This document shows, piece after piece, positions 6,640-44,121 of a stretch of DNA of 64,000 nt. The stretch covers positions 124,001-188,000 of the forward strand of contig NZ_QZWD01000008.1 in assembly GCF_003602005.1 (NCBI RefSeq), given 5' to 3'. The notes under the pieces were generated by a model. It was not told the DNA's origin and did not search any database. It worked only from the letters and a program-made list of their open reading frames with translations. The position numbers and the translations under genes are program-made. This DNA is from Salinisphaera sp. Q1T1-3 (GTDB lineage: Bacteria > Pseudomonadota > Gammaproteobacteria > Nevskiales > Salinisphaeraceae). How positions within the stretch are numbered: position 1 is the first letter of the stretch; the number at the start of each line of letters is the position of its first letter.

Positions 6640-6791
6640 GGCTATCGATGTGTGACATGTGCGAGCTACAACGCCGAATCTCAGGATATTGACCTGCGTC
6701 CCGATGCGCGTGCGCGTAGCGCCCGAAAATCCACCCGGCGGCCTCTCCCTTCGAGACAGGCGGACTCGCACGAAACCTCAACAGGCCCTAG
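6640..6791. repeat. CTAG-ended repeat, copy A (short, diverged)
   Basis: The right end CGAAACCTCAACAGGCCCTAG matches the ends of copies C and D, and the 20-25 bp inside it also match. The left end (about 6640, GGCTATCGATGTGTGACATG) is a diverged form of the opposite end. The CTA of the terminal CTAG is the complement of the stop codon (TAG) of the ompW-like gene. A separate 8-bp inverted repeat, ACACATCG...CGATGTGT, lies at 6628-6653. This repeat and its flank fill the 360-bp gap between the lipoprotein and porin genes. Confidence 0.6.
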
Positions 6792-7726
6792 AACCGCACG
6801 CCCATGGAAAGCTGATAGAGCACGGCACGGAAATGGTTCGTGCTGCTGATAGTGCCGACATTCACCGGACCGAGCGTATCCGAGAGATTCGGCGCATCGA
6901 CGACGACGTCGTTGAGCTTGGACTTGACCTCGGCGCAACCGATGTACTGGGCCTCGGCGCCGACAAAGAAGGTTTCGGTGATGTTGATATCCACGCCCAG
7001 CTTGCCGGTGCAGGCCCAGGGCTTGGAGACATACAGCGTCGGCTCGTTGACCGAGTTCAGCAGCTTGTTGCTGATGTCGGTGTCGTAGGTGTAGAGATAC
7101 ATCGCGCCCACGCCGATATAAGGCTGCACCCGCGTCTCGACGAACGGCCGATAGACGAAACTGATGTTCGGCGGCAGCGTCTTGAGCGTGCCGATATTGC
7201 GGCCCGTCGTCGGTACGCCCGTGGGAATCGTGTTGCCGGGGCCGTTACCCGACAGCGCATCGCCGGCAATCGATTGCGTCGCCGCCAGGCCCGATACCTG
7301 GAAGTCCAGTTTGATCGGCGCCGACAGGGTCACTTCTGTGGCCAGATGATGATTCGTCCGCGGGATATACAAACCGAGCGTACCGGAGGGCAACATCTTG
7401 TCACCGACCGAAGAACCGGAGTCGGCGATCTTGGACTCGCCCGGGCCGAAGGCCTGGGCTGCCAGTCCCTTGGCATTGTCGATCTGGAGCTTGGTGCTGT
7501 CGCCGTAGTAATCGAAATAGCCGGCACCGAAGCGGAAATACAGATTGTCCGACACGTAATGCAGCGCATTGCCGAAGATCGAGTCGCCGCCCTGATTCGC
7601 ATCGAGGTCCTGCATCTCGCCCTGGGCCGATGCGCTCGTCGTGGATAAAAGCCCGCCCAGCACTACCAGCCCGGCAGCCAGCCCGCGCCGATTGATGCGC
7701 GCGAATCCTTGTCTGCAGCTTGCCAT
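6788..7726 (-). CDS. OmpW-family outer-membrane beta-barrel protein
   Basis: 312 aa with a Sec signal peptide (GLAAGLVVLGGLLSTTSASA, cleavage after ASAQG about residue 35) and a barrel ending in the aromatic C-terminal residue of the BAM signal (LSMGVRF). Internal strands such as PNISFVYRPF and VQPYIGVGAMYLY are typical of OmpW (PF03922). OmpW is a small barrel for hydrophobic compounds; the E. coli protein is about 210 aa, so this one is longer, with extra loop sequence in the first half. Start at 7726 has SD AAGGGAGA. Its TAG stop coincides with the end of repeat copy A. Confidence 0.85.
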   Translation of the reverse strand: MASCRQGFARINRRGLAAGLVVLGGLLSTTSASAQGEMQDLDANQGGDSIFGNALHYVSDNLYFRFGAGYFDYYGDSTKLQIDNAKGLAAQAFGPGESKIADSGSSVGDKMLPSGTLGLYIPRTNHHLATEVTLSAPIKLDFQVSGLAATQSIAGDALSGNGPGNTIPTGVPTTGRNIGTLKTLPPNISFVYRPFVETRVQPYIGVGAMYLYTYDTDISNKLLNSVNEPTLYVSKPWACTGKLGVDINITETFFVGAEAQYIGCAEVKSKLNDVVVDAPNLSDTLGPVNVGTISSTNHFRAVLYQLSMGVRF

Positions 7727-8205
7727 CTCGATCTCCCTTGATCAGCGATATTGTTCTTGCTTGATGCGTCGCCAGCGCCAGACCGCTGCGACGTGCTTCC
7801 CCAACCGTTCACCAACGATCATCGCAGCAATTGGAAAATTTTCCTTGTTAGCTCGCGACAGGTCTAATTTATATGAAAGAGAAGGCGTTAGAAGCGCACT
7901 CGACTAAAGATTAAGGCAGCGACCTGCGCACTCCCGAGTTGCCCACGCCGTCATCGGCCGTCTCCTCGTGCACGACTTGATTATCGGCGAGGCAACACAA
8001 CACTCAATGAGTGTACGTTGAAGTTTGAATCCAGTAATCGGAACATGCTTTGGCGTCAGCGCTTTGTGATGGCCGTGAGACCGGCGCGGTCACCCCGAAC
8101 GCTGACCGGCAGGACGCTGCTTTCCAAGCGGCGCTCCATCACGCCCACCCCACGGGTGCGCCCTGTTTCGAGCTGAATCATCACCGGCCGAACATGGAAA
8201 TGACT
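7727..8205. other. Intergenic region between divergent ompW-like and aldo-keto reductase genes
   Basis: No gene seen. The part next to ompW is AT-rich for this genome (about 7820-7910) and probably holds its promoter. The part before the reductase holds the palindrome at 8000-8014. Confidence 0.5.
8000..8014. promoter_or_regulatory. Perfect 15-bp palindrome, likely operator
   Basis: ACACTCA-A-TGAGTGT, a perfect inverted repeat about 190 bp before the aldo-keto reductase start. Its size and symmetry fit a TetR- or MarR-type operator. No regulator gene lies next to it. Confidence 0.45.
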
Positions 8206-9036
8206 ATGCATCACGTCACTGCCAACGGCGCCAATATCGCGGCACTCGGTTTCGGCACGTTCGAGCTCGAGCCCGCCGATGCCGAGGCGATGGTCGAGCA
8301 CGCCATTCGGGCAGGCTATCGCCACATCGATACGGCCCAGATGTACAACAACGAAGAAGCTGTCGGCCGCGGCATCCGCAACGCCGGCGTCGACCGCGGC
8401 GATATCTTTCTGACCACCAAGGTCTGGACAGACCAGTTTGCCGACGGCGATCTCCAGGCTTCGGTACGCGACAGTCTCGAGCGACTCGGCACCGATTATC
8501 TGGATCTGGTGCTGCTCCACTGGCCGAACCCGGATATCTCTCTCAAGGAGACCATGGCCGCACTGAACGCCGTGCAGGAAGAAGGCCTGGTCCGCCATAT
8601 CGGCATCAGCAATTTCACGGCGGAACTGATTCACGAGGCCGCGTCGCTGTCGCGCGTGCCCCTGGCCACGAACCAGGTCGAATACCACCCCTATCTCGAC
8701 CAGCGACCGGTGCTCGACGCACTGGCCGAACACGGCATTTCGCTGACGGCCTATTGCCCGCTCGCCCGCGGCGCCGTCTTCAAGGACCCCACGCTGGAGC
8801 GGATCGGCAAGCGCTACGGCAAAAATGCCGGTCAGATCGGGCTGCGCTGGCTGGTTCAGCAGGACAATGTAATCGCCGTGCCGCGGTCATCGAAACCGGC
8901 CCATGTCAGCTCGAATCTCGACATCTTCGACTTTTCACTGACCGAGGAGGAGATGGCCGAAATATCGAAGCTGCACTCCGACGACGGCCGCATGATCAAT
9001 CCATCGTTCGCCCCGGCCTGGGATACGGCTGCGTAG
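8206..9036 (+). CDS. dkgB: Aldo-keto reductase, 2,5-diketo-D-gluconate reductase B (DkgB)-like
   Basis: 276 aa. AKR signatures are present: DTAQMYNNEEAVGRGI (Asp and Tyr of the tetrad), LTTKVW (Lys), LLHWP (His), and the C-terminal IAVPRSSKPAHVSSN NADPH-binding loop. The family reduces aldehydes and ketones such as methylglyoxal and diketogluconate with NADPH in the cytoplasm. ATGs at 8194, 8200 and 8206 are in frame; I chose 8206 because GGAAA stands 7 bp ahead of it. The stop TAG is the first part of repeat copy B. Confidence 0.88.
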   Translation: MHHVTANGANIAALGFGTFELEPADAEAMVEHAIRAGYRHIDTAQMYNNEEAVGRGIRNAGVDRGDIFLTTKVWTDQFADGDLQASVRDSLERLGTDYLDLVLLHWPNPDISLKETMAALNAVQEEGLVRHIGISNFTAELIHEAASLSRVPLATNQVEYHPYLDQRPVLDALAEHGISLTAYCPLARGAVFKDPTLERIGKRYGKNAGQIGLRWLVQQDNVIAVPRSSKPAHVSSNLDIFDFSLTEEEMAEISKLHSDDGRMINPSFAPAWDTAA

Positions 9037-9303
9037 GGCCGTTAACACATCCCGCGTGCGCCGCGCCGGCGATCATTTTTTACAAGAGCAAGGCATCGGG
9101 CGCTTACGGCCGTCATTCTGCCGTAGCGAACGACTACAACGGATTGCGGAAAATGACCGCCGTCCCGTCGGGTTGCGGCCAAAAACCGGCCAGGCAAGGC
9201 GGCAGGGCTTGACCTTGGTCATGCCAAGGTCAAGCCGTGCAACGCCGCATGGCCTGTTTTTGGGCGGCAACGCGGTCACGTGCGAAGTGTTCACAGGCCC
9301 TAG
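9033..9303. repeat. CTAG-ended repeat, copy B
   Basis: Starts at GTAGGGCCGTTAACACAT, a diverged form of the end seen at 43819, and ends CACAGGCCCTAG at 9303. Inside, the order of blocks is that of copy D: GTCATTCTGC, then GTCCCGTCGGGTTG, then a hairpin, then the right end. The central hairpin is TTGACCTTGG-TCATG-CCAAGGTCAA, a different sequence from copies C and D but fully paired. The TAG of the left end is the stop codon of the aldo-keto reductase gene. Confidence 0.72.
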
Positions 9304-9323
9304 GCAACAGCATCGCGATGACG

Positions 9324-9355
9324 TGATGCCCGAGCAATACGGCGCTCGGGCATCA
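9324..9355. terminator. Strong hairpin downstream of fadA
   Basis: TGATGCCCGAGC and GCTCGGGCATCA form a perfect 12-bp stem with an 8-nt loop, between the 3' end of fadA (minus) and repeat B. There is no T run, so it may protect the mRNA end rather than terminate. A further GC-rich hairpin, GCCCGG...CCGGGC, lies nearer the fadA stop at about 9397-9425. Confidence 0.45.
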
Positions 9356-9449
9356 GCCACGGCTCGAGCCGAGGCAGCGGCTCGACCGTCGTGCACCGAG
9401 CCCGGGCATGACGCCGGGCCGGCTTTCCTTGCGCCTTGGCGCGATGCGA

Positions 9450-10610
9450 TCAGCGCACGCGCTCGATCACGGTGGCGATCCCCTGGCCCATGCCGATGCA
9501 CATGGTTGCCAACCCGAGTGTGGCGTCCTTGTCTTCCAGAATATGCGCCAAGGCCCCGGTAATGCGCGCGCCGGACGTCCCGAGCGGATGGCCGAGCGCG
9601 ATCGCCCCACCCCGCACGTTGACGATGTCCTGACGCTCGGCGATACCGAGTTCCGTCAGCACGGCCAGGCTCTGTGCCGCGAACGCTTCGTTGAGCTCGA
9701 TGTAGTCGATGTCCGAGAGCGCCACACCGGCGCGCTCAAGGGCCTTGTGCGTCGCCGGCACCGGACCGCGCCCCATGACCGAGGGGTCACAGCCGGCCAC
9801 CGCCATGCCGCGTATCCGGGCCATGGGCTCCAGCCCCAGCGCCTTTGCCTTGTCGGCCGACATCACGAGCACCGCCGCGGCACCGTCGGAAATGGCCGAG
9901 GCATTACCGGCTGTCACGCTGCCACCCTTCGGGTTGAAGGCCGGCCGCAACGAACCGAGTGCTTCCATGCTGGCATCGGCCCGTACGACTTCGTCGGCGG
10001 CACACATGCGCGCGAAACCGTGCTCATCGACACCGGCCACCGGCACGATCTCGGCGGCGAACTCACCTTCGGTGTTGGCCCGATACGCGCGCTGATGGCT
10101 TTGCAGGGCGAACGCGTCCTGGCTGTGTCGATCAATCCCGTGGATCGTGGCCAGCATCTCGGCGGTCAGCCCCATCATTGCTGCCGGCCTGGCGACCTGG
10201 CGTGACAACGCCGGGGCGATATCGATGTTGTAGTCCATCGGCACGTGGCCCATGTGTTCGACGCCGCCACAGATGTAGACGCCGTCGATGCCGGCAGCGA
10301 TCGCGCCGACAGCCGAGTGGATCGACTGCATGGAAGAACCGCAGAGCCGGTTGACGGTCTGGCCGGCCACCGCATGCGGCAGGCCGGCCAACAGGGCAGC
10401 ATTGCGACCGATGTTGAGCCCCTGCTCCTTGGTCTGCTGGACACATCCCCAGATCACGTCCTCGATCTCGTTGGGATCAAGCGGGTTGCGGGCGACCAGC
10501 GCTTTCATCAGAGCCGCGGACAGGGCCTCGGCACGCGTATCGCGAAACATGCCGCCCTTCGAGCGACCCATGGCGGTTCTCACGGCATCGACGATCACGA
10601 TGTCTTTCAT
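9450..10610 (-). CDS. fadA: 3-ketoacyl-CoA thiolase FadA (beta subunit of the fatty acid oxidation complex)
   Basis: 386 aa, full length. Thiolase catalytic motifs are intact: NRLCGSSMQ with the acylated Cys (about residue 91), [23 protein letters not shown] with the active His, and CIGMGQGIA with the second Cys. It cleaves 3-ketoacyl-CoA with CoA to acetyl-CoA in the last step of beta-oxidation. It follows fadB by 49 bp on the same strand, the usual fadBA operon. Confidence 0.97.
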
Positions 10611-10659
10611 GACTTGTCTCCGAAAAGGAAGTGCAGATCACGCGGGCGCAGGGTTGCGC

Positions 10660-12810
10660 TCACGACATCTGGAAATAGGTCTCACCGCGGGCCGCCATCT
10701 CGCGCATCCGCTCGGTCGGCTCATAGAGCTTGCCCAATCGCGCATAGCGATCGGCCTTGTCGCAGACCGTCTGCAGCCCCTGGGCATCGGCATACTTGAA
10801 CGCGCCGCCACGGAACGGCGGGAAACCGAGGCCCATGATCAGGCCCATGTCGACCTCATTCGGCGTTTCGGCAATGCCCTCTTCGTAGGCCCGCGCAGCT
10901 TCGATGATCATCGGAATCATCATCCGATCGATGATCTCGTCGGCCTCGAAATCCTGCTTGTCGCGCTGAACCTGCTTGATCAGTTCGTAGGCCTTGGGAT
11001 CCTCCGACTTCTTCGGACGACCTTTCTTGTCCTTCTCATAAGCGTAGTAGCCGGCACCGGTCTTCTGACCCAGCCGATTGTTCTCGACCATCACATCCAG
11101 GGACGACTTCTCGTCCTGCTTCATCCGATCCGGATAGCCTGCGGCCAACACGTCCTCGACGTGCTGGGACGTGTCCATGCCGACCACGTCCGACAGATAG
11201 GCCGGGCCCATCGGCCAGCCGAACTTCTCCATGACCTTGTCGATATGCGCGAAGTCGGCCCCGTCGGCGATCAGCTGCTGGAACCCGAAGAAATACGGGA
11301 ACAGGATCCGATTCACGAGGAAGCCCGGGCAATCGTTGACCACGATCGGCGTCTTGCCGAGCTTGTGGGCAAAGGCCACGATCGTGGCCACGGCCTCGTC
11401 GGACGAGGCCTTGCCCCGGATGACTTCGACCAGCGGCATCCGATGCACCGGATTGAAGAAGTGCATGCCGAGGAAGTTCTCGGGACGGGACAGGCCCGTG
11501 GCGAGCTCGTCGATCGAGATGCTTGAGGTATTCGAGGCCAGAATCGTGGATTCGGAGACCGCGCCTTCGGTCTCGGCCAGAACGCTTTTCTTGATCTTCG
11601 GATTCTCGACCACGGCCTCGATCACGGCATCGACGTCACCGAAATCGGCGTACGACAGCGTCGGGCGAATCCGCGACATGCCGGTCGCCATGCCCTGCGT
11701 ATCGAGCTTGCCGCGCTCCACGCCCTTGGCGAAGTGCTTGGCGGCTTCTTCCAGCCCCTGATCGATCGCGTCCTCCTTGATGTCCTTCATCAGGGTCGGC
11801 ACGCCCTTGTAAGCCGACTGATAGGCAATACCACCCCCCATGATGCCGGCCCCCAGCACGGCCGCCTGATCGATCTCGTGTGCGATCTTGCCGGCCTGCT
11901 TGCCTTTCTTCTTGATCAACTGGTCGTTGAGGAAAAGCTGGATGAGGGCAGCGGCCTGCGGCGTCTTGGCAACCTTGATGAAGCCCTGTGTTTCCACCTT
12001 GAGCGCTTCGTCGCGCGACAGATGGGCCGCCTGCGCCATGCCATCGATGGCCGCGATGGGCGCCGGATAGTGGCCCTTGGTCGTACCGAGCACATAACCC
12101 TTCGCGGTCTCGAAGGTCATCGCTGCCTCGGTGCGGTTGAGCTTGAGCGGCCCCGTCTTGTCCGCGCGTCGGCCCGCCCAGTCGAACTCGCCGGCGATGG
12201 CGCGCGCCAGAAGATCACGGGCGGCCGCTTCGAGCCGGTCGTCGGCGACAACCGCATCGACCATGCCCACGGCAAGCGCCTTGCCGGCGTCACGGTTCTT
12301 GCCGTCGGCGATCCATTCGATGGCGTTGTCCGCACCGATCAGGCGCGGTGTACGCACGGTACCGCCGAACCCCGGATAAATACCGAGTTTCGTTTCCGGA
12401 AAGCCGATCTGGGCCTTCTCACCCATCACCCGATAATCCGTGGACAGACACATTTCCAGCCCGCCACCGAGCGCCATGCCGTTGATCGCAGTGACGCTGG
12501 GCATCGCCAGGTCCTCGATAGCATTGAATACCGCATGGCTGTCGGCCATGCCGCGCGCGAATTCGTCGTCGGGCAGCTTGAAGCGGGCGCCGAACTCCAT
12601 GATGTCCGCGCCGACGATGAACGCGGGCTTGGCCGACGTCACCAGCAGTCCCTGCACACCCTCGGACGCCACCAGAGCCGCAGCCGCCTCGCCCAGTTCG
12701 GCGACCGTGGCCTCATCGAACTTGTTGACCGAGGACTCGGCAGCATCGAAACACAGCACTGCGATGTCGCCATCGACAGTGACCGTGAGCTTTTTGCCTT
12801 CGTACAGCAT
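10660..12810 (-). CDS. fadB: Fatty acid oxidation complex alpha subunit FadB
   Basis: 716 aa, as E. coli FadB (729). The N-terminal half is an enoyl-CoA hydratase/isomerase (NGMALGGGLEMCLSTDYRVM, about 107-126), the middle is a 3-hydroxyacyl-CoA dehydrogenase with a Rossmann motif (AVLGAGIMGGGIAYQSA, about 316) and the catalytic HFFNPVHRMPLVEVI segment. Start at MLYEGKK (12810) has GGAG upstream; the frame stays open to 12876. With FadA it performs the hydratase, dehydrogenase and epimerase steps of beta-oxidation. Confidence 0.97.
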   Translation of the reverse strand: MLYEGKKLTVTVDGDIAVLCFDAAESSVNKFDEATVAELGEAAAALVASEGVQGLLVTSAKPAFIVGADIMEFGARFKLPDDEFARGMADSHAVFNAIEDLAMPSVTAINGMALGGGLEMCLSTDYRVMGEKAQIGFPETKLGIYPGFGGTVRTPRLIGADNAIEWIADGKNRDAGKALAVGMVDAVVADDRLEAAARDLLARAIAGEFDWAGRRADKTGPLKLNRTEAAMTFETAKGYVLGTTKGHYPAPIAAIDGMAQAAHLSRDEALKVETQGFIKVAKTPQAAALIQLFLNDQLIKKKGKQAGKIAHEIDQAAVLGAGIMGGGIAYQSAYKGVPTLMKDIKEDAIDQGLEEAAKHFAKGVERGKLDTQGMATGMSRIRPTLSYADFGDVDAVIEAVVENPKIKKSVLAETEGAVSESTILASNTSSISIDELATGLSRPENFLGMHFFNPVHRMPLVEVIRGKASSDEAVATIVAFAHKLGKTPIVVNDCPGFLVNRILFPYFFGFQQLIADGADFAHIDKVMEKFGWPMGPAYLSDVVGMDTSQHVEDVLAAGYPDRMKQDEKSSLDVMVENNRLGQKTGAGYYAYEKDKKGRPKKSEDPKAYELIKQVQRDKQDFEADEIIDRMMIPMIIEAARAYEEGIAETPNEVDMGLIMGLGFPPFRGGAFKYADAQGLQTVCDKADRYARLGKLYEPTERMREMAARGETYFQMS

Positions 12811-12883
12811 TGTTGACTCACTCCCAACGATTGAAGCGGCGTTCACGATCCGTGCACGCCGAATGGCCCGGAACAAAGCTGGT

Positions 12884-12901
12884 CAATACGGTAGCGTATT
12901 G
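12884..12901. promoter_or_regulatory. Inverted repeat upstream of fadB, likely operator
   Basis: CAATACG-GTAG-CGTATTG, a perfect 7-bp inverted repeat about 75 bp before the fadB start. On the minus strand it overlaps TTGACA (12905-12900), a good -35 hexamer, so binding would probably repress fadBA. Candidates from known biology are TetR-type fatty-acid regulators (PsrA or FadR_TetR); none is encoded here. Confidence 0.5.
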
Positions 12902-13050
12902 TCAATAGGCAGACAACGCGCTTCGCATGACGCTGAAGACAGCCTCGATCCCGCCACAGTCTTCATACGACACCCGACGGCTTGTTTTTGACAGGCCGGG
13001 GGCGGCATGATTATCTAGCGCCATTATCCGATGGTGGTGGAATCACTCGC

Positions 13051-14202: not shown

Positions 14203-14225
14203 CCGGACCGACAAGGCTGCATGTG

Positions 14226-14251: not shown

Positions 14252-14294
14252 ATTGGATACGCTATCCCGTGCGGGCGGCGGCAAGCGACACGCG

Positions 14295-21881: not shown

Positions 21882-23577
21882 TTGGCTCGGTCAGGCGATC
21901 GCGAGCCCCGCACTGGCGCTCTTCTTTGCGGCACTCCTGGTGGCCGTGACACCACGCCTGCTGCACGGGCTGTGGCTGGTCGGTGTGCCCGCAGCGGCCC
22001 TGGCACTGCTGTTCGCCCTGCCCGAGGGTATGCACGGTACGGTCTCCATGTTCGGCCACGAACTGAGCACCCTGCGCGTGGACGGCCTGTCGCGACTCTG
22101 GGGCGCGATCTTTCTGCTCTCGGCTGCCTTGACCGGGTTGTACGGTCTCAACGTCAAGGACCGGCTCCAGCACGTCGCGAGTCTGCTCTACGCCGGCAGC
22201 GCAGTCGGCGCGGTTCTGGCCGGCGATCTGGTCACGCTGTTCCTGTTCTGGGAAGGCACGGCGATCTCGTCGGTGTTTCTGATCTGGGCACGGCGTACCG
22301 TGCGGGCGCATATCGTCGGCGTGCGATACCTGATCATCCAGGTGATTTCGGGCCTGCTGCTGATGGTGGGCACAATCATCCACCAGCGCGCCACGGGCTC
22401 GATCGCCTTCAACACGCTCGGACTGGATTCGGCCGGCGGCTGGCTGATCTTCCTGTCATTCGGCATCAAGGCCGGGTTTCCGCTGCTGCACAACTGGATT
22501 CAGGACGCCTACCCGGAAGCCACGGTCTACGGCACGGTGGTCCTGTCCATCTTTACCACCAAGCTGGCGATCTATGCGCTGGCGCGCGGTTTCGCTGGCA
22601 CCGATCTGCTGATTCCGATCGGCGCCGTGATGACGATCTTTCCGCTCATCTTCGCGCTCATCGAGAACGATCTGCGACGGGTACTGGCCTACTGTCTGAA
22701 CAACCAGCTGGGCTTCATGGTCGTGGCGATCGGTATCGGCACACCGCTCGCCCTGAACGGCGCGGCCGCCCACGCGGTGGCACACATTCTCTACAAGGGA
22801 CTACTGTTCATGACCATGGGCGCGGTGCTCTACCGCGTGGGCACGGTCAAGGCCAGTCAGCTCGGCGGGCTGTACCGAAGCATGCCTGCCACGACCGTGT
22901 TCTGCATCGTTGGCGCCATGGCCAGTTCCGCCGTGCCACTGTTTTCGGCATTCGTCAGCAAATCCATGATTCAGGGCGCGCTGGGCTACGAACACATGGC
23001 TGTCGTGTGGGTGGTGTTGCTGGTCGCCGCCGGCCTCGGTGCGATCGTACCCGGCATCAAGGTGCCGTTCTTCGCGTTCTTCCATCGGGACCGCGGCTAT
23101 CGCGTCAAGGAAGCCCCGTTCAATATGCAGCTGGCGATGGGCGCGACCGCGCTGCTCTGTATCGCGGTTGGCGTCTTTCCCGGCGCGCTCTATGCACTGC
23201 TGCCCTACGAGGCCACCTACAACGCCTATACGCTGTCGCACGTGATCAACCAGCTGCAGCTGCTGGCGTTCGCCGCGCTTGCCTTCGTACTGCTCTATGC
23301 CGCCCGGTTGTTCCCGGCCAACGTCCGTGGGCTCAATCTCGATACGGACTGGGCCTATCGACGCGCCCTGCCTGCGCTGGTGGAGCGCTTCCGCCAGAGC
23401 TCCGTCTCGTTGCGTGCCCGGGTCATGCATGTCTTCAGCCGCAACGGATCGCGGGCCGCGGACTGGCTGGCCAGTGCTTTCGGTCTGGGGGGCGCGATGG
23501 CCCGAACATGGACGACCGGCGTGATGCTCCTGTGGGTGATCGTGCTGCTCGCGCTCTATCTGGTCATCTACTACTAG
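21874..23577 (+). CDS. Antiporter subunit D-like, third copy (NuoL/MnhA-N-like)
   Basis: 567 aa, the longest of the three. FLFWEGTAISSVFLIW (TM5 Glu), IKAGFPLLHNWIQDAYPEAT (TM7 Lys) and HILYKGLLFMTMGAVLY are conserved. The extra C-terminal part (about 450-567) has an amphipathic stretch and a final membrane helix (MLLWVIVLLALYLVIYY), recalling the lateral-helix end of NuoL/MrpA. It may fill the place of the MrpA N-terminal part. The TAG stop is the first part of repeat copy C. Confidence 0.88.
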   Translation: MSDWLGQAIASPALALFFAALLVAVTPRLLHGLWLVGVPAAALALLFALPEGMHGTVSMFGHELSTLRVDGLSRLWGAIFLLSAALTGLYGLNVKDRLQHVASLLYAGSAVGAVLAGDLVTLFLFWEGTAISSVFLIWARRTVRAHIVGVRYLIIQVISGLLLMVGTIIHQRATGSIAFNTLGLDSAGGWLIFLSFGIKAGFPLLHNWIQDAYPEATVYGTVVLSIFTTKLAIYALARGFAGTDLLIPIGAVMTIFPLIFALIENDLRRVLAYCLNNQLGFMVVAIGIGTPLALNGAAAHAVAHILYKGLLFMTMGAVLYRVGTVKASQLGGLYRSMPATTVFCIVGAMASSAVPLFSAFVSKSMIQGALGYEHMAVVWVVLLVAAGLGAIVPGIKVPFFAFFHRDRGYRVKEAPFNMQLAMGATALLCIAVGVFPGALYALLPYEATYNAYTLSHVINQLQLLAFAALAFVLLYAARLFPANVRGLNLDTDWAYRRALPALVERFRQSSVSLRARVMHVFSRNGSRAADWLASAFGLGGAMARTWTTGVMLLWVIVLLALYLVIYY

Positions 23578-23850
23578 GGCCTGTTGAGGTTTCGTGCGAG
23601 CGCCTTTTCGTCGAGAGACCACAGCGTGTCCGGCAAGGCGCGAGTTGCCGATCGTGGCGTGCCACGACCAAGGCTCGCAACGCCGCCGGGCGGGATTTGT
23701 GGCCCAACCCTTCGGGACAGGTGCTGTTGTGCGGCAATCCCGCGCTCGAGCGCGCCGGTGCCGCGTCATGCGTGCGACGCGTCTCGTCGCCCATAACCTA
23801 TTGCCGACAGCACTTGGCGCGGACTCGCCCGACACACCAACAGGCTCTGG
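23574..23850. repeat. CTAG-ended repeat, copy C
   Basis: About 277 bp, the inverse of copy D: CTAGGGCCTGTTGAGGTTTC at the left and CACCAACAGGCTCTGG at the right. Inner blocks shared with D (as complement): GCAAGGCGCGAGTTGCCGAT, the hairpin TCGTGGC-GT-GCCACGA, CCCAACCCTTCGGGAC, and a palindrome CGCGCTCGAGCGCG where D has CCAGCG...CGCTGG. The TAG of the left end is the stop codon of the last antiporter gene. It fills most of the 459-bp gap to dnaQ; the remainder (23851-24036) shows nothing I recognise. Confidence 0.82.
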
Positions 23851-35161: not shown

Positions 35162-35181
35162 TCAGCCCTCGCTGACATAAA

Positions 35182-36553: not shown

Positions 36554-36733
36554 GGATTGGGACCTCTTGAAACTCTTCAGTGTCCGATACGTCCTGTATG
36601 ACACACCGGACAAATAATTGTCACGCCATCGCCATGTGCCGCGGTCTCAGCAACGGCATGATGCAGGCCTTGCGCGGTGCATCGAGCACCATGGCTGCCA
36701 CCATTGTCCGCAAGCAAGGCATCGAACGCGGTA

Positions 36734-36765
36734 ACGCCCCGGCGCTCGTCGTACGCCGGGGCGTG
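36734..36765 (-). terminator. Hairpin between clpP and clpX
   Basis: ACGCCCCGGCG and CGCCGGGGCGT form an 11-bp stem with a 10-nt loop just after the clpP stop. No T run follows on the minus strand, so it may act as a processing or stability element that sets the ClpP:ClpX ratio. Confidence 0.5.
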
Positions 36766-36773
36766 ACGTTTCG

Positions 36774-37415: not shown

Positions 37416-37494
37416 AACGTCTCGCTTGTCTGAGCCAACGAGGGCAAGCCGGCCGGCCCGGGTTGGCCGGCCGACCGGAACGATCTGCGCCTGA

Positions 37495-38817
37495 TCAGCC
37501 CTGGCTGTTGGCGTTCAAGAGCTCGTCGAGCTCGGTTTCCTTTTCGGTGACGGTGGCGCCGGCGAGCAGGTTATCAACCACCTGCTGTTCCATGACCATC
37601 GCCTGCAGACCCTGCATGAGCTGCGGGTTCTGCTGATAGTACTGCTTGACCTGTTCGGCCTGTTCGCCGTAGCCGGAGGCGACTTCGTCCATCTTCTCGT
37701 CGACCTTGGCCTGGTCGAGTTCGAGCTCGCGCTCCGAAATCACTTCCGCGATCAGCAGACCGAGCGCAACACGCTTTTCCGCCTGTTCGCGCAGTGCCTC
37801 GTCAGGCAGCAGCTGCTTGGCCTGTTCCGGATCCTGCTGCATTTCCTGTGGCATGCGCTGCATCGCTTCCTTGCGCATGCGATCGATTTCCTGAGCGACC
37901 ATCGCTTCGGGCACTTCGATCGTGTTGGCCTCGTGCAGCGCATCCATGGTCTGCGTCTTCATGCTCGTTTCGATCGCGTGCTTGAGCTCCTGCTCGAGCG
38001 ATTCGCGGATCCGTGCACGCAGGGCCTCTGCCGTACCCTCCTCGACGCCCATCTGCTGGATGAACGCCTCGTTCAACTCGACCGGCTTGGCCTCGGCGAC
38101 CGACTTCACCGTGATGGAGAACGTCGCGGTCTTGCCGGCCAGCTCTTCGGCGCCGTAGTCCTCGGGGAAGGCAACATCCAGATCGAAATCCTCGCCGGCC
38201 TTGCGACCGACCAGCCCGCGCTCCATGTCGGGCAGGAACTTCTGCTCGCCCAGAGTGATTTCCATGTCGTCGGCCGAGCCGCCCTCGAAGGCTTCGCCAT
38301 CGATGCGCCCGATGTAATCCACGGTGACCTGATCACCGTCGACGGACTCGCGCTCGACCGCCTCAAAGGTCTTATTCTGGTCGCGGATCCGCTCGAGGGT
38401 GTTGTCGACGTCGGCCTCGCCCACTTCGGCGACCGGCTTTTCGACGGTGATCGAATCCAGCCCCTGAAGCGTGATTTCCGGATAGACCTCGATATCGGCC
38501 GTGAACGACAGCGGCCCGTCTTCCTCGAACGAATCGAGCTGGATCTCCGGCTGACCCGCCGGGTTGAGCTCGGATTTCTCGATCGCTTCCGGATACGTCT
38601 GCTGAATCAGTTCGCTGACCACTTCCTGGCGCGCCTGGGCGCCATAGCGCTGATAAAGCACCTTGGCGGGCGCCTTGCCCGGACGAAAACCCGGAATGCG
38701 CGCATTCTGCCCGACGCGCTTGACCTTTTCGTCCACCGCGCCGTTAACACGTTCGGCCGGGATCTGGACCTTGAGCCGTCGTTTCAGACCGCCGGGATTT
38801 TCTACGGAGACGTCCAT
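37495..38817 (-). CDS. tig: Trigger factor
   Basis: 440 aa. Ribosome-binding tail with GFRPGKAP signature (about residue 44), FKBP-type PPIase domain ([20 protein letters not shown], about 160-180) and the long C-terminal helical domain. First chaperone for nascent chains. Start of the tig-clpP-clpX-lon-hupB run. Confidence 0.98.
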
Positions 38818-38862
38818 TGGTACCTCAATCGAAACTGATCTTGTTTATCTAAAGACAATAAC

Positions 38863-38888
38863 GAGGCGATGCCCGAAGGCATCGCCTC
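38863..38888 (-). terminator. Hairpin after the aldo-keto reductase gene
   Basis: GAGGCGATGCC-TTCG-GGCATCGCCTC on the minus strand, an 11-bp stem with a UUCG loop, then a T-rich stretch. It ends transcripts entering the tig upstream region. Confidence 0.7.
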
Positions 38889-38923
38889 AATCGACCAACC
38901 AGTATAACAACCAGTCAATCGTT

Positions 38924-38941
38924 GGCGCCCGCGCGGGCGCC
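38924..38941. repeat. 18-bp perfect GC palindrome
   Basis: GGCGCCCGC-GCGGGCGCC, 11 bp after the aldo-keto reductase stop; it can form a hairpin only with a very tight loop or act as a protein-binding site. Confidence 0.5.
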
Positions 38942-38952
38942 CCGCTCAGTGC

Positions 38953-39948
38953 TCACCCCTCGCGCGCCGGCGGCGCCATGAACTCCGGCCCGACCGGGTC
39001 GGTGACATGGCGATTCACGATGGCCTCGATTTCCGCCCGAGCATCGTCATCGAGATGCCAACCGGGCACGTTGGCGACCGCATCGAGCTGATCGGGCGTG
39101 CGTGCGCCCCACAGCGCAAAAGCATGGTCGTACTGATCGAGCAACCAGCGAATCGCCAGATCCAGCACGTGCTTGCCGTAGTGTTCCTGCGCGAAGGCTT
39201 CCAGCGCATCGACCGCCGCCAGGTACTGCCCGAAGCGCGGCTGCTGGAATTTGGGGTCGCTGTTGCGCAGGTCGTCACCCGGAAATTCTCGATCCGCGTG
39301 CATGCGCCCGGACAACAGCCCCCGGCACAGGGCGCCGTAGGCCAAAAGGCGTGTATTGTTATCACGCGCCCATGGCAGCACGTCGTTGTCGATTTCGCGC
39401 TCGAACAGGTTATAGGGGTTCTGCGCAACATCGATGGCCACGATCTCCTGGAACGCGTCCATCTGCGCGGGCGTGAAATTCGACACGCCGACCGCCCGTA
39501 TCTTGCCGGCCGACTTCAGCTCGGCCATGGCCTCGGCAGTTTCGCGTATATCGACCTGCGGATCCGGCCAGTGCACCTGGAGCAGATCGATCGTATCGCT
39601 GCGCAGCCGGCGGCGCGAGTCGTCCGCCTCCTTGAGAAGGCGCTTCTTGCTGGCGTTTCGACGTACGTTGCCGTCGTCGTCCCACTCCAGCGCGCATTTG
39701 GTCGCCAACACCACCTGATCGCGCATGCCGCCCTGTTCGACGGCCTTGCCGACGATTTCCTCGGATCGGCCGAACCCGTAGACGGGCGCGGTATCGATCA
39801 GGGTTACGCCGCGATCGGGCGCGCTCTGGATGGTGTGAATCGATTCTTTTTCGTCGGTGCCGCCCCACATCCAGCCACCGATGGCCCATGTGCCGAGGCC
39901 GATCCGGGATGCGTCGAGGCCGTTACCGTTGAGATCGCGTGTTTCCAA
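38953..39948 (-). CDS. Aldo-keto reductase (AKR11/12-like, MFS-independent cytoplasmic oxidoreductase)
   Basis: 331 aa from a TTG at 39948 (ETRDLNGNGLDASRIGLGTW), which has GGAGAG 5-7 bp ahead; an ATG at 39975 is in frame but has no SD. Catalytic tetrad: LIDTAPVYGFGRSEE (Asp, Tyr), LATKCALEW (Lys), LLQVHWPDP (His). Cofactor loop near the C-terminus. Substrate unknown; not close to the DkgB-like gene at 8.2 kb. Confidence 0.85.
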   Translation of the reverse strand: METRDLNGNGLDASRIGLGTWAIGGWMWGGTDEKESIHTIQSAPDRGVTLIDTAPVYGFGRSEEIVGKAVEQGGMRDQVVLATKCALEWDDDGNVRRNASKKRLLKEADDSRRRLRSDTIDLLQVHWPDPQVDIRETAEAMAELKSAGKIRAVGVSNFTPAQMDAFQEIVAIDVAQNPYNLFEREIDNDVLPWARDNNTRLLAYGALCRGLLSGRMHADREFPGDDLRNSDPKFQQPRFGQYLAAVDALEAFAQEHYGKHVLDLAIRWLLDQYDHAFALWGARTPDQLDAVANVPGWHLDDDARAEIEAIVNRHVTDPVGPEFMAPPAREG

Positions 39949-40040
39949 CCAGTCTCTCCACGTGACGAATGCCATGGAGGTGGGGTGCGATCACGACGCA
40001 TTCAAGCGTGGATGCTCGAAACGTCGGGAAAAGGAGAGGA

Positions 40041-40115
<75 letters not shown>

Positions 40116-40122
40116 GCCGGGA

Positions 40123-40199
40123 TGGGGTGGACGATCGGACTCGAACCGACGACGACCGGAATCACAATCCGGGGCTCTACCAACTGAGCTACGCCCACC
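40123..40199 (-). tRNA. tRNA-His (GTG)
   Basis: Includes the extra G(-1) opposite C73 that marks histidine tRNAs; anticodon loop TTGTGAT, T arm GTCGG-TTCGAGT-CCGAT, encoded CCA. Seven bp upstream of tRNA-Lys on the same strand. Confidence 0.94.
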
Positions 40200-40388
40200 A
40201 CCGACAGATCACTCGTCAGCCGGGCATCCCGCCTAACGAGCGGCGTATTCTAGCGGGCTTGTCAGCGCTTGCCAACAGCCGATCGCATCATCGCCCTACG
40301 CGCCCCGCCGCCAGCGGTGTTGAAAGCGCATGCCACTGCGCCCGACGAGTTGCAGCATGCCTTGGCCAGCCTTGATAATACGCACGCT

Positions 40389-40464
40389 GCGCTCGTAGCT
40401 CAGGGGATAGAGCAGCGGTCTTCTAAACCGCTGGTCGCTGGTTCGAATCCAGCCGGGCGCACCA
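40389..40464 (+). tRNA. tRNA-Arg (TCT)
   Basis: 76 nt with encoded CCA; acceptor GCGCTCG...CGGGCGC, anticodon loop CTTCTAA, T arm GCTGG-TTCGAAT-CCAGC. Opposite strand to tRNA-His/Lys. Confidence 0.95.
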
Positions 40465-40498
40465 TCCTCATCCACGACAAGCCGCCTTCGATGAACCG

Positions 40499-40521
40499 CG
40501 CCCGCAGCGCGGGCGGGCTTT
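40499..40521 (+). terminator. Terminator after tRNA-Arg
   Basis: CGCCCGC-AGC-GCGGGCG followed by GGCTTTA; the T run is short. Confidence 0.6.
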
Positions 40522-40730
40522 ACCAGGGCGCCTCACCAGGGCGCCTCGTCACGAGATAGGCAAGTCGTGAGCCTCGTCGCGCTTTTCCACCGGTATTGCA
40601 AGGCCCTTGCCACGATCGACGACGGCCCCCATTGCGAGTCGTCATTGCTGCGAACGACAAGCGGTCGGCACCGCATCGAGACCGCGCCGCCAGTCTCACC
40701 ACGACTCTTGCCAGCCCGGTGGCTACGGTC

Positions 40731-41486
40731 TCACGCGACCCGGACCAGCGCCATCCAGGCCCCCTTCGACAGCAGGATGATCGACAGGGCGAAAAGCATG
40801 ATTTCAATCATGCGCCGGTACGTGGTTTCGGACAGCCATTGCGCGATCCGACGGCCGATCACGGTGCCCACGATGCCGGTGGCGACCAGCCCCAACGTCA
40901 GCTGCCAGCTCAGGCCATGGAGCTTGTCGAGCCACCAGTAGGCCGGGAGCTTCGCGAGATTGCAAAAGGCAAACGCAATCGCGATCGTGCCGGCGAATTG
41001 CAGCTTGGGCAGCCGCTGTGGCAACAGATACGCCTGGGCCGGCGGGCCGCCCGAATGCGTGATGAAGCTGGTAATGCCGGTGATCGTGCCCCAGAACACG
41101 CCCTGCGGCACCGCCGCCTCCGTGGCCGCCCCCTGGCCTCGGCCAAGCCAGGTCCGCAGGCAATACCAGAGCCCGATCAAGCCGGTGACGATCAGCAACA
41201 GGCTTTCCGGCGTATACGGCGTGACGACGGTCGCGATCGTCACGCCAACCAGCATCGACGGGATCAGAATCGCCAGATTGCGCTTCGAGTGATCGCGACG
41301 ATAGAGCGACACGGCGACCCAGTCGGTCACGATATAGACCGGCAACAACAGGGCCGCGGCCTGAATCGGATTCATCACCAGCGCCAGCATCGGCACCGAA
41401 ATCGCGGCCGCCGAGGCCAGACCGCCCTTCGACATGCCCACAATCAGGGCAGCGATCAGCAGCAGAACGATATGCGTTGTAAGAAT
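40731..41486 (-). CDS. TauE/SafE-family (sulfite exporter-like) permease with probable ATT start
   Basis: 251 aa if begun at an ATT codon at 41486, or 236 aa from a GTG at 41441. The GTG start would cut the first membrane helix (LTTHIVLLLIAALIVGMSKG) in two, while the ATT has AGGA 7 bp upstream and completes the helix; no in-frame ATG, GTG or TTG exists between the upstream stop and the GTG. Family motifs: GMSKGGLASAAAISVPML and SFITHSGGPPAQAYLLP (the two halves of the repeat). Exports sulfite, sulfoacetate or similar organosulfur anions in characterised cases; the substrate here is open. Confidence 0.8.
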   Translation of the reverse strand: MLTTHIVLLLIAALIVGMSKGGLASAAAISVPMLALVMNPIQAAALLLPVYIVTDWVAVSLYRRDHSKRNLAILIPSMLVGVTIATVVTPYTPESLLLIVTGLIGLWYCLRTWLGRGQGAATEAAVPQGVFWGTITGITSFITHSGGPPAQAYLLPQRLPKLQFAGTIAIAFAFCNLAKLPAYWWLDKLHGLSWQLTLGLVATGIVGTVIGRRIAQWLSETTYRRMIEIMLFALSIILLSKGAWMALVRVA

Positions 41487-41835
41487 GCGCCGATCCTGTT
41501 GCGACGGACAATATTCAGCGATTCGCCGTGAGGCCCGAGCACGCGGCGGTCGCGCGACACTTTAATCGAGCCCCGACCAAGCGTCGAGACGGTCTGCAAC
41601 GACGCAGGAACGGCCGCCGATCAGAAGCAAGACGCGCCCGGCCGCAATGTCGACACACGACCACCGAATAGAAGCACGCGTGTTGTCTTGCTGGCTTGCG
41701 CGCCGCTGGATCGGCAGCCCGATTCCCGGTCGCCCGGGGCCAAGGCGCTTACGGCCCGCGTGGCACAGCAAAGCCGAGACGGCAGACACGAAACCAGCCT
41801 TGAATACCGCGCCACACTACAATCCGTATGCGCGC
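41487..41835. other. Gap between ABC exporter and TauE-like gene
   Basis: No gene, RNA or clear terminator recognised; only short unsupported frames. Confidence 0.4.
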
Positions 41836-43608
41836 TCAGGCCGCGAATTGCAGCCGCGCCAATTCCGCATACAGGCTGCTCTCGCGAAGCAGGCTGTCAT
41901 GGGTGCCCTGGGCGACGATGCGGCCTTTGTCCATGACCACGGTGCGATCCGCGCGCTGGACAGTGGACAGCCGGTGGGCCACGACCAGCGTGGTACGTCC
42001 GACAGCCAGTCGGGCGAGGGCCTGTTGAATCGCGGCCTCGGATTGCGCGTCGAGCGCGGACGTCGCCTCGTCCAGCAACAGCAGCGGCGCATCACGCAGG
42101 ATCGCGCGAGCGATCGCCAGACGTTGTCGCTGACCGCCGGATAACCCCACGCCGCGCTCGCCGATACGTGTGTCGTAGCCCTCGGCCAGCGCCGCGATAA
42201 ACGTGTGTGCCTCGGCAGCCTGCGCAGCCGCCCGCACCTCGGCATCCGTGGCCGTCGGCCGGCTGAAGCGAATATTGTCGGCAACGCTCGCCGCGAAGAC
42301 GACCGTGTCCTGCGGCACCAGGGCAATCGATTGGCGTAGCATATCCACCGATAACGCTTTCAGATCGACCCCGTTCCATGTGATGGCGCCGGCAACCGGA
42401 TCGTGAAACCGCAACAGCAAGGCCAGCAACGTGCTCTTGCCAGCCCCGGACGGCCCGACGAGTGCCACGGTCTCGCCTGGCACGATTGCCAGATCGATAT
42501 CCTCGAGCACCGGCTGCGATGTGCGCGTCGGATACGCGAACGCCACCCGCTCGAAGCGGATCCGCGCCTGTCGAGGCGTCGGCATGGGCTCGGGCTCGGC
42601 CGGCGCCACGATGTGCGAACGCTCGGCGAAAAGATCGGCGATCCGCCCCATCGCCCCCGCAGCCCGCAGGACCGAGCCCCAGACGTTGCTGATCGAGCCG
42701 ACCGCGCTGGCAGCGAACACGGCATACAGCACGAACTGACTCAGGATGCCGACCTCGAGCGTGCCGGCAAGCACATCCAGCGCGCCGATCCAGAGCACCA
42801 GCGTGATCGCGCCGAACACCAGAACGACGACACCGGCGATCAGCGCGGCGCGCATGCCGATACGACGACGAGCGGTATGCAATGCCCGTTCGATCGCCTG
42901 GCCGTATCGCCGGCCTTCGAGATGCTCTCGACCATATGCCTTGACCGTCGCGACGGCATTCAATGTTTCGTGACTGATCGCACTGGCCTCGGCCAGCTGA
43001 TCCTGGCTGTGCCGCGACAATCGCTGGACGCGACGGCCGAAGACCAGAATCGGAACGACCACCGTCGGAATGATCAGGGCCGTCAGGCCGGCCAGCCGCG
43101 GGCTCGTCCAGACCATGGCCGCGCTGGCGCCCACCAGCATCACGATGGAGCGCAAGGCTGTGGATATGCTGGAGCCGATCAGCGTCTGCACCAGTTCAGC
43201 ATCCGTGCCCAGACGCGACATCAGCTCGCCGGTGCGACTGGTGTCGAAAAACGCCATGTCCAGCCCCACGAGATGGCGATACAACGCCCCGCGCAACGAC
43301 GCCAGCGCTCGTTCGCCCAGCAGCGTGATACAGAAATAGCGCAGCGCCATCGCCAGCGCGTAGACGAAAGCGACCAGAAACAGCGCGGCAAACGTGCGAT
43401 CGACAGCCGCGGCGTTATCGGCTGTGAACCCGCGGTCGATCATATGACGCACGGCGACCGGCAACACGAGGCTCGCCCCCGAAGACAACACCAACGCGAG
43501 CAGCCAACCCAGTGCCAGGCCACGGTGCGGCCGCAAGAACGGCCACAGACCGAACAGCGCTGAAAACCGATGATTGCGATTCCCGGAATCGACCGACGTC
43601 GTACGCAT
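41836..43608 (-). CDS. ABC exporter, fused permease and ATPase (MsbA-like)
   Basis: 590 aa. Six-helix exporter domain (about 20-320), then an ABC ATPase with Walker A GPSGAGKSTLL (about 385), Q loop VPQDTVVF, signature LSGGQRQRLAIARAIL, Walker B LLLLDEATSALD and H loop VAHRLST. A half transporter that works as a homodimer or with a partner; drug, lipid or peptide export. No dedicated partner is beside it, so the substrate is unknown. Confidence 0.92.
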   Translation of the reverse strand: MRTTSVDSGNRNHRFSALFGLWPFLRPHRGLALGWLLALVLSSGASLVLPVAVRHMIDRGFTADNAAAVDRTFAALFLVAFVYALAMALRYFCITLLGERALASLRGALYRHLVGLDMAFFDTSRTGELMSRLGTDAELVQTLIGSSISTALRSIVMLVGASAAMVWTSPRLAGLTALIIPTVVVPILVFGRRVQRLSRHSQDQLAEASAISHETLNAVATVKAYGREHLEGRRYGQAIERALHTARRRIGMRAALIAGVVVLVFGAITLVLWIGALDVLAGTLEVGILSQFVLYAVFAASAVGSISNVWGSVLRAAGAMGRIADLFAERSHIVAPAEPEPMPTPRQARIRFERVAFAYPTRTSQPVLEDIDLAIVPGETVALVGPSGAGKSTLLALLLRFHDPVAGAITWNGVDLKALSVDMLRQSIALVPQDTVVFAASVADNIRFSRPTATDAEVRAAAQAAEAHTFIAALAEGYDTRIGERGVGLSGGQRQRLAIARAILRDAPLLLLDEATSALDAQSEAAIQQALARLAVGRTTLVVAHRLSTVQRADRTVVMDKGRIVAQGTHDSLLRESSLYAELARLQFAA

Positions 43609-43818
43609 AAGGCGTCATGCCCGCACACATCGCGGACCGTAGCGATAAGGATTAACGCCCCAAGATACCGGAGCCAGTCTCGTGCCGGGCGCGCGCACTC
43701 CGGTAGAAAGAGATCACCGGATATCAGCGCCGCGCTAGAGTCCGAACGCCATCGAGACGAAACCGGGACACGGCTGATCAGTCGGCACGACGGAGGGGCG
43801 TCCACGGCCCGACTCGCG

Positions 43819-44121
43819 CTAGGGCCTGTTGATGTGTCGTGCGAGTCCGCGCCAAGTGCGCCCTGAAATTGACGATGGGCGGCAAGACGAGGCATAGCAC
43901 GCATAGCGTGTCATTCTGCGCCAGCGGGCTAGAACGCTGGATTGCCGTCGTGTTTTTGATTTTGGGGGCACTTGTCCCTTCGGGTTGGACTACAAATCTC
44001 GCCCGGCGGCGGCGTTGCGAGTCTGGATCGTGGCACGCCACGATCGGCAACTCGCGCCTTGCAGGACACACTGCGGCCTCTCGACGAAAAGGCGCTCGAA
44101 CGAAACATCAACAGGCCCTAG
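43819..44121. repeat. CTAG-ended repeat, copy D (best-preserved)
   Basis: 303 bp bounded by CTAGGGCCTGTTGATG and CATCAACAGGCCCTAG, a 16-bp perfect terminal inverted repeat including CTAG at both outer edges, which looks like a 4-bp target duplication. Inside: CCAGCG...CGCTGG hairpin, GTCCCTTCGGGTTGG mini-hairpin, and the main hairpin GATCGTGGC-AC-GCCACGATC. It carries no plausible protein. It sits upstream of the ABC exporter gene. Confidence 0.88.

What the first reader, a model, noticed from the sequence alone, without database searches (positions are those of the whole stretch)
6640..44121. Repeat family with CTAG ends and hairpins that change sequence but keep pairing
Four copies (about 6640-6791, 9033-9303, 23574-23850, 43819-44121) and a loose end at 44346-44362 share ends of the type CTAGGGCCTGTTGA. 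In copy D the central hairpin is GATCGTGGC-AC-GCCACGATC, in C TCGTGGC-GT-GCCACGA, and in B TTGACCTTGG-TCATG-CCAAGGTCAA: unlike sequences at the same position, all fully paired. A second hairpin also varies (CCAGCG...CGCTGG in D, CGCGCTCGAGCGCG in C, GTAG...CTAC in B). Compensatory change points to selection on structure, either as RNA or as a site for a transposase or other protein. The ends and the 4-bp CTAG look like an IS5-type MITE (inference).
Basis: partly seen in the sequence, partly recalled or inferred. Interest (0 to 1): 0.82.

Follow-up and report, generated by a model that had tools for sequence, protein, structure and literature searches.

The report
Salinisphaera mini-transposons nested at stop codons
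The repeats are a large family of short jumping DNA elements, apparently moved by an ordinary bacterial transposase, that often sit exactly on gene stop codons and whose hairpins seem to stay paired partly because one arm gets copied from the other.

Summary
The repeats are real: an abundant IS5-type MITE system of the genus Salinisphaera. The own genome has 192 exact copies of the 11-base end motif (2 for the reversed control). A 42% sample held 77 paired elements: 76 short ones and one 864-bp autonomous IS with an open IS5-family transposase and the same CTAG-flanked ends. A held-out, phylogeny-aware test shows variants keeping their pairing in the terminal repeats (across species) and in one internal arm, but not in the arm holding the cited hairpin. 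The genus's autonomous ISs carry the same two end types as the repeats. Inside, snapshots show one arm rewritten to match the other (3 of 90 family-1 copies; also window copy B) and whole arms inverted (1 of 101; 2 of 7): signatures of template switching. New observation: elements prefer CTAGs that are TAG stop codons; in the sample 66 of 274 TAG-ending genes end on an element-like end. Copies at stops are no better conserved or folded than others, so a host function is not supported.

The parts
6640..6791 (-). Copy A, degraded/deleted family-1 element; recognisable family-1 similarity only at 6732-6791 (end CTCGCACGAAACCTCAACAGGCCCTAG)
   Evidence: blastn of D against the region: 32 bp 94% and 60 bp 80%
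6788..7663 (-). OmpW-family gene whose TAG stop codon (6788-6790) is the TAG of copy A's CTAG end
   Evidence: gene call, Pfam OmpW, sequence
8050..9036 (+). Aldo/keto reductase gene whose TAG stop codon (9034-9036) is the left edge of copy B
   Evidence: Pfam Aldo_ket_red; orthologues end at the corresponding codon without an element in the 3 informative of 13 congener loci
9033..9304 (+). Copy B, family-2 MITE (ends GGGCCGTTAACAC / GGGCCTGTGAACACTTCGCACGTGACCG)
   Evidence: fold -149.6 kcal/mol, z -8.85
9206..9236 (+). Perfect hairpin of copy B; lies in an arm that is inverted relative to 5 of the 7 family-2 copies compared, and whose left side alone has been rewritten to the complement of its right side
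   Evidence: 7-copy alignment and arm-orientation scores
21874..23577 (+). Proton_antipo_M gene (NADH:quinone oxidoreductase/Mrp antiporter type) whose TAG stop (23575-23577) is the left edge of copy C
   Evidence: in 13 of 13 congeners no element at the stop codon, 12 of 13 stop after the same residue
23574..23850 (-). Copy C, family-1 MITE, opposite orientation to D
   Evidence: 75% identity to D over 301 bp on the minus strand; alignment A1
23652..23667 (-). Hairpin TCGTGGC-GT-GCCACGA of copy C: reverse complement of D's hairpin
   Evidence: sequence, alignment
43819..44121 (+). Copy D, family-1 MITE, reference copy; intergenic, not at a stop codon
   Evidence: fold -155.1 kcal/mol, z -7.2
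44026..44045 (+). Hairpin GATCGTGGC-AC-GCCACGATC of copy D (inside arm 2)
44323..44362 (-).
   Evidence: 39-bp match 90% to the start of B

Best explanation
The copies are non-autonomous miniature elements (MITEs) of two families. Family 1 is moved in trans by an ~860-bp IS5-family insertion sequence (DUF4096 + DDE_Tnp_1 transposase) that shares its ends and duplicates CTAG (shared ends and CTAG flanks shown; movement in trans inferred; family 2 by analogy). Because CTAG contains TAG, an insertion into a gene's own CTAG stop leaves the stop codon intact, so stop codons are safe landing sites and are over-represented; insertions that interrupt genes are rare, presumably purged (pattern shown, cause inferred). 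Pairing is kept for two reasons. At the ends, both repeats must match the transposase, so they switch together between an A type (GTTGAKGTTTC) and a CCG type (GTTGCCGTTTC). Inside the element, the quasi-palindromic arms are now and then rewritten from each other or flipped, most likely by template switching during replication (products shown, process inferred). A host function is not required.
For: Copy number. Autonomous IS with the same ends; its ends match D's over 20-23 bp. Related ISs with A-type ends (own genome, S. hydrothermalis) or CCG-type ends (G002, G004, G006, several Pseudomonas; nearly so in Methylomonas), most of them in CTAG. End types of the repeats by species. Empty sites. 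Target bias: 35 of 76 non-genic elements at stop codons against 68 of 285 unoccupied non-genic CTAG sites (odds ratio 2.7, p 3e-4). Gene interruption: with the flanks joined, a coding frame crosses the site in 2 of 76 elements against 78 of 386 free CTAG sites (p 4e-5). Covariation held out between species. Arm correction: 3 of 90, copy B. Arm inversion: 1 of 101, 2 of 7.
Against: No movement was observed directly. Six of 14 Salinisphaera genomes gave no match to the own-type transposase, among them the one-contig genome G007 with 102 CCG ends, so the parent is missing or lost there. End type and IS type agree clearly only in the own genome and G004; G005 has A-type ISs but both kinds of repeat, G002 and G006 have too few hits to judge. 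Many copies have imperfect CTAG (both sides CTAG in 18 of 77, one side in 41, neither in 18). Arm correction is seen in few copies, so how much of the arm-1 signal it explains is unproven. The plain share of paired cells exceeds the null in arm 2 as well. I made no systematic search for an IS with family-2 ends.
Confidence: 0.8

Rival explanations
1. Selection keeps the structure because the transcribed element works as RNA (3' UTR stabiliser, RNase III site or terminator) at gene ends.
For: The three copies folded do far better than shuffles (z -7.0 to -8.9); arm 1 keeps pairing beyond a phylogenetic null in both held-out directions, and the plain share of paired cells exceeds the null in arm 2 too; elements are enriched on stop codons. 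Precedents: RNase III cutting of Correia elements in mRNA and ERIC effects at gene 3' ends (PMC10969869, passages).
Against: Full-length family-1 copies at stop codons are not closer to D, not better folded and do not have better ends than other copies (20 against 27, p 0.58-0.83); either end can face the gene (19 against 15); arm 2 shows no excess of pair-keeping changes; no terminator-like site was found inside copy D itself; arm-to-arm copying already produces kept pairing.
Confidence: 0.12
2. The folded single strand (DNA hairpin) is itself what a transposase or host protein recognises, as with REP/REPIN elements, so the inner arms are part of the transposition substrate.
For: Both families share a two-arm plan around the ends; REPINs show common compensatory changes (PMC3116915, passages).
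Against: The autonomous IS shares only about 20 terminal bases with D and no arms; short copies of 104-238 bp keep both ends, so full arms look dispensable for having transposed, unless the deletions came later.
Confidence: 0.1
3. The pairing is passive: sub-families diverged and inherited blocks give an appearance of covariation.
For: Many of the strongest covarying column pairs are unpaired neighbours, so haplotype blocks exist; only 5 of 102 pairs pass E < 0.05, and one of these (176-195) looks like an indel artefact.
Against: The null keeps the tree and the number of changes per column, and signal remains at the ends in the across-species direction and in arm 1 in both directions; paired columns share change branches more than unpaired columns of the same two strands (0.149 against 0.080, p 0.005 in arm 1).
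Confidence: 0.2

Closest known systems
MITEPsy1 of Pseudomonas syringae (PMC3189936, passages read)
   Same: IS5-like MITE, 18-nt terminal repeats, inserts at CTAG or YTAA and duplicates it
   Different: 100 nt, few copies; different end sequence; here mostly 270-325 nt with internal arms, 76 short elements in 42% of one genome, genus-wide
IS5 family, NCBIfam NF033580 transpos_IS5_3 (IS427-like by recall)
   Same: Transposase family, ~860 bp, CTAG flanks, ends that match family 1
   Different: The MITEs share only about 20 terminal bases with the IS
REPINs/RAYT (PMC3116915, passages read)
   Same: Extragenic palindromic repeats with compensatory changes, high copy number
   Different: Here two-ended elements with a DDE IS5-type partner and a target duplication
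Correia, ERIC, YPAL, RUP and Coxiella QMITE elements (PMC2229807, PMC5896051, PMC10969869, passages read)
   Same: Small mobile intergenic repeats that fold into hairpins and can lie next to gene ends
   Different: In the passages read no element used the stop codon itself systematically as its duplicated target; one QMITE2 insertion at a gene's 3' end extends the gene
Template switching that makes and maintains hairpins (PMC8794818, PMC8604942; search listing and start of abstract only)
   Same: Arm homogenisation and spacer inversion, the two products seen here
   Different: Described there for RNA hairpins and yeast genes; here in parallel copies of a bacterial MITE

Membership tests
IS5-type MITE | Short element in many copies | tested here: met
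   76 short elements of about 104-325 bp in 1.64 Mb; 192 exact ends genome-wide
IS5-type MITE | Terminal inverted repeats shared with an autonomous IS5-family element in the same genome | tested here: met
   family 1: IS at about C58:85628-86492, 20-23 bp shared with D; family 2: only the outer 11 bp shared
IS5-type MITE | Target duplication (CTAG) | tested here: met
   CTAG on both sides in 18 of 77, on one side in 41, on neither in 18; most related ISs also lie in CTAG
IS5-type MITE | Empty orthologous site | tested here: met
   copy C: no element at the stop codon in 13 of 13 congeners; copy B: none in the 3 informative of 13
IS5-type MITE | No coding capacity | not tested
   no protein search of the copies was run
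IS5-type MITE | Movement by the IS transposase in trans | not testable with these tools
   needs a transposition assay
IS5 family (the parent IS) | DDE transposase above the curated cut-off | tested here: met
   NF033580 248.6 bits, cut-off 110; DUF4096 and DDE_Tnp_1 above their cut-offs
IS5 subgroup IS427 | ISfinder subgroup assignment | not testable with these tools
   ISfinder not held; name from recall
REPIN/RAYT | Partner transposase of the RAYT (Y1) type | not tested
   no search for Y1 transposases was made; the partner with matching ends is a DDE enzyme
Structured RNA family | Match to an Rfam model | tested here: not met
   only 7 tRNAs in the window at gathering scores
Structured RNA family | Covariation beyond shared descent in internal helices | tested here: inconclusive
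   arm 1 yes, arm 2 no on pair-keeping changes; one credible internal pair at E < 0.05

The most novel reading that the evidence does not exclude
The genus has turned a parasite into a standard 3'-end part: elements that land on CTAG took over about a quarter of the TAG stop codons (66 of 274 in the sample), and the kept pairing of arm 1 reflects a working hairpin in the mRNA 3' ends, refreshed by arm-to-arm copying.
Probability: 0.1. Interest if true: 0.7.

Novelty: new member of a known kind. Interest (0 to 1): 0.4.

Why it matters
It is a caution: a look-alike compensatory change can come from reading a palindrome in the wrong orientation and from arm-templated copying, not only from selection on RNA structure. 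The family also offers many parallel copies in 14 species in which template switching, and the matching of MITE ends to transposase type, can be studied. Stop-codon-preserving insertion may explain how a MITE can reach high copy number with little damage.

Tried and rejected
Rejected: B as a diverged copy of D (different family). Rejected as an explanation of the covariation: widespread arm inversion in family 1 (1 of 101). A host role at stop codons was looked for through conservation, folding and orientation and not found. My first test of gene interruption (1 of 77 elements against 105 of 390 sites) was unfair, because an insertion splits the gene call; one search replaces it. RNAalifold on the own-species alignment alone gave a weak structure (28 pairs, covariation term -0.68) and was replaced by scripts. 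A small third helix (columns 268-280) looked supported on the full alignment but failed when held out. A loose first script for the arm comparison misplaced the hairpin in many rows and was replaced. My working note said that all four window copies sit on stop codons; that is wrong, it is A, B and C (plus the IS outside the window), not D. A plasmid search to name the organism gave nothing useful. Papers, from listings (titles and abstract starts): nothing on MITEs in Salinisphaera among the 5 of 5 papers listed and the 8 of 3,790; nothing on stop codons as the target of an IS5-type MITE among 3 of 3, 11 of 11, 12 of 808, 12 of 21 and 10 of 34. The library is open-access only, so this is weak evidence of absence.
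Full report
OBSERVATION. The window is C58:124001-188000 of a 3.87-Mb, 59-contig genome. GGGCCTGTTGA occurs 192 times exactly in the genome against 2 for the reversed motif. A DNA search with D scored 40 of 288 first-look candidates; of the 83 listed matches, 40 span nearly all of D at 85-100% identity, D itself included, the rest are parts. In a 1.644-Mb sample (42%) I paired ends and kept 77 non-overlapping elements (up to 5 mismatches in both ends together): 76 short ones and one of 864 bp. Simple scaling would give about 180 in the genome; that is extrapolation.

WHAT THE COPIES ARE. D and C are one family (family 1, mostly 270-325 bp) in opposite orientation; B belongs to a second family (ends of the GTTAACACTTCGCACGTGACCG / GTTAACACGTCCCGCGTGCGCC type), as does the fragment at 44323-44361. 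62 family-1 copies from the own genome align at 81% mean column identity. Because C is inverted, its hairpin TCGTGGC-GT-GCCACGA is D's TCGTGGC-AC-GCCACGA read on the other strand. The sequence has not changed, so this is no compensatory change.

PARENT ELEMENT. PF01609 was found at 8 places in the own genome. The one at C58:85990-86460 lies in an 864-bp element with ends CTAGGCCCTGTTGAGGTTTC and CTAGGGCCTGTTGATGTTTC and an open 267-aa frame that passes DUF4096, DDE_Tnp_1 and NCBIfam transpos_IS5_3. It too begins at the TAG of an upstream 274-aa open frame. A second copy is cut by a contig end. The IS and D share 20-23 terminal bases and nothing else convincing; with B only the outer 11.

DISTRIBUTION. 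D-like copies occur in 13 of 13 other genomes of the genus, in 1 of 3 genomes of other genera of the family, and in 0 of 24 of other families of the order. The genus is Salinisphaera, inferred from named loci: the nearest transposases (91-93%) are in S. hydrothermalis C41B8, and G005 holds transposases of the same identities. Species differ in end type. GGGCCTGTTGA ends dominate the own genome (192 exact 11-mers; 3 CCG-type hits) and are common in G009 (81 exact 13-mers). GGGCCTGTTGCCGTTTC with up to one mismatch has 112 hits in G001, 102 in G007 and 131 in G013. The searches used different patterns and mismatch limits, so the numbers are not strictly comparable. Autonomous ISs carry the same two types: own genome and G005 GAKG; G002, G004 and G006 (60-66% transposase identity) CCG. 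Agreement within a genome is clear for the own genome and G004 (13 CCG hits, 1 A-type 13-mer); G005 has A-type ISs and both kinds of repeat (35 CCG hits); G002 and G006 have too few. A script sought the ends of 20 IS loci (19 of the 66, and G006); it failed or misplaced them in at least three (L167, L169, L192), and some relatives (Nitrosomonas, metagenome bins) have other types such as GACAATTC. G003, G007, G008, G009, G010 and G013 had no match to the own transposase.

STOP CODONS. In the window, copies A, B and C lie with their TAG on the stop codon of a gene; D does not. Genes were called by my own codon-usage script: 1,363 genes, 84% of the sample, so single gene ends are uncertain. Of 274 TAG-ending genes 66 are followed by GGCCTGTTGA with at most 3 mismatches, against 7 of 943 for TGA and 2 of 146 for TAA. 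By element: 35 at a stop codon, 41 intergenic, 1 overlapping a gene. By CTAG site free of element ends: 68 stop, 217 intergenic, 105 genic. Stop against intergenic: odds ratio 2.7, p 0.0003; restricted to regions downstream of a gene 2.6, p 0.001. Of 42 solo ends with at most one mismatch, 16 were at stops. The genic counts are not comparable as they stand, since an insertion splits a gene. With the flanks joined, a coding frame crosses the site in 2 of 76 elements (one lay too near a stretch end) against 78 of 386 free CTAG sites (p 4e-5); the test finds 67 of 105 genic sites and fires at 4 of 214 intergenic and 7 of 67 stop sites, and both positive elements had been counted as stop-located. 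Orthologues of the gene before C were read in 13 congeners: none shows an element at the stop codon in the bases printed after it (one, G006, runs into Ns), 12 of 13 stop after the same residue and G007 one codon later. For B only 3 of 13 were informative (L289, L290, L301), all stopping at the same codon without an element; L291 hit an early stop in the frame read, and in 9 loci the gene was not in the fetched stretch. So at C and B the stop position was there before the element.

STRUCTURE. D, a short-arm copy and B fold at -155.1, -149.0 and -149.6 kcal/mol with z of -7.2, -7.0 and -8.9: a terminal stem and two arms. I aligned 62 own copies with 39 of 40 fetched congener copies (L237 dropped for a broken left end): 101 rows, 315 of 358 columns kept. 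A covariation test with a null that keeps the tree and the number of changes per column (100 distinct rows, 40 simulations) found 5 of 102 pairs with E < 0.05 (null mean 0.1): three in the terminal repeats, 89-103 in arm 1, and 176-195, which looks like an indel artefact. Because the structure came from the same alignment, I repeated it held out. Structure from own copies tested on congeners: terminal repeats keep pairing in 62% of variant cells (null 24%, 0 of 200), arm 1 42% (null 31%, 0 of 200), arm 2 15.5% (null 14.7%, 70 of 200), a small third helix 0%. Structure from congeners tested on own copies: arm 1 41% (null 28%, 0 of 200), arm 2 17% (null 20%), terminal repeats 31% (null 25%, 24 of 200), that is not significant within the species. 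Energy-only structures gave the same picture. Against a clean split, the plain share of paired cells exceeds the null in arm 2 too (0 of 200 in both directions), and paired arm-2 columns share change branches slightly more than unpaired ones (0.174 against 0.069, p 0.036, including the artefact pair). I take the pair-keeping measure as the fairer one. The cited hairpin lies in arm 2.

HOW PAIRING IS KEPT. At the ends the change is the A/CCG switch, which concerns both ends at once and is also found on ISs. Inside there are direct snapshots. Beside the arm-2 hairpin the two strands normally differ (in 85 of 90 copies at most 5 of 10 positions match). In L056 and L129 the left strand has become the complement of the right-strand type (10 and 9 of 10), and in G005 L235 the right strand has become the complement of the left type (10 of 10); each new strand occurs on that side in one copy only (11 of 101 copies lacked a recognisable hairpin and were left out; L056 and L129 may share one event). 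Copy B shows the same: the 31 bases of its right strand equal those of its nearest relative (C43), while its left strand has changed and pairs perfectly over the 13 bases next to the loop. Whole arms also flip: arm 1 in L103:2461-2749 (1 of 101) and the arm-2 hairpin in B and C43 (2 of the 7 family-2 copies that covered at least 200 of B's 272 bases). Homogenised arms and inverted spacers are the two products ascribed to template switching between inverted repeats (PMC8604942, PMC8794818; start of abstracts in the listing). That this is the mechanism here is inference.

FUNCTION. Full-length family-1 copies at stops (20) and elsewhere (27) do not differ in identity to D, folding energy per base or end mismatches; either end may face the gene (19 against 15). 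The stop codon bias is best read as a safe site for a CTAG-targeting element plus purging of harmful insertions.

VERDICT. A new, abundant, genus-wide MITE system of a known kind, with a notable stop-codon habit and a good natural record of arm-templated copying.

Noticed in passing
window 52131-52403: Remnant of another IS4/IS5-type transposase (DDE_Tnp_1, 24.7 bits, just over the cut-off of 23), with a similar match at C8:77020-77292; no GGGCCTGTTGA-type end within its fetched locus.
   Followed up: partly
window 42018-42028: An exact GGGCCTGTTGA inside a long minus-strand ORF (41836-43608) without CTAG; probably a chance match.
   Followed up: partly
own genome C22:317216-317590 and C33:214217-214563 (sample coordinates): A third end type, GGGCCTGTTATKAACCCGGCATAAAAAT, paired with a family-2 end: a further or chimeric MITE family.
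   Followed up: no
G007, one-contig congener: 102 CCG-type ends with at most one mismatch but no match to the own transposase and only a below-cut-off IS5_3 match: a MITE crowd whose parent seems to be gone.
   Followed up: partly
L283 (G007), orthologue of the gene before copy C: The stop reads TAGGGCCTG, one codon later than elsewhere, which could be chance or a leftover of an old element end.
   Followed up: no
contig ends of G000 (C7, C14, C43) and G009: Element ends lie within tens to hundreds of bases of contig ends, so these repeats probably break the assemblies and copy numbers are underestimates.
   Followed up: no
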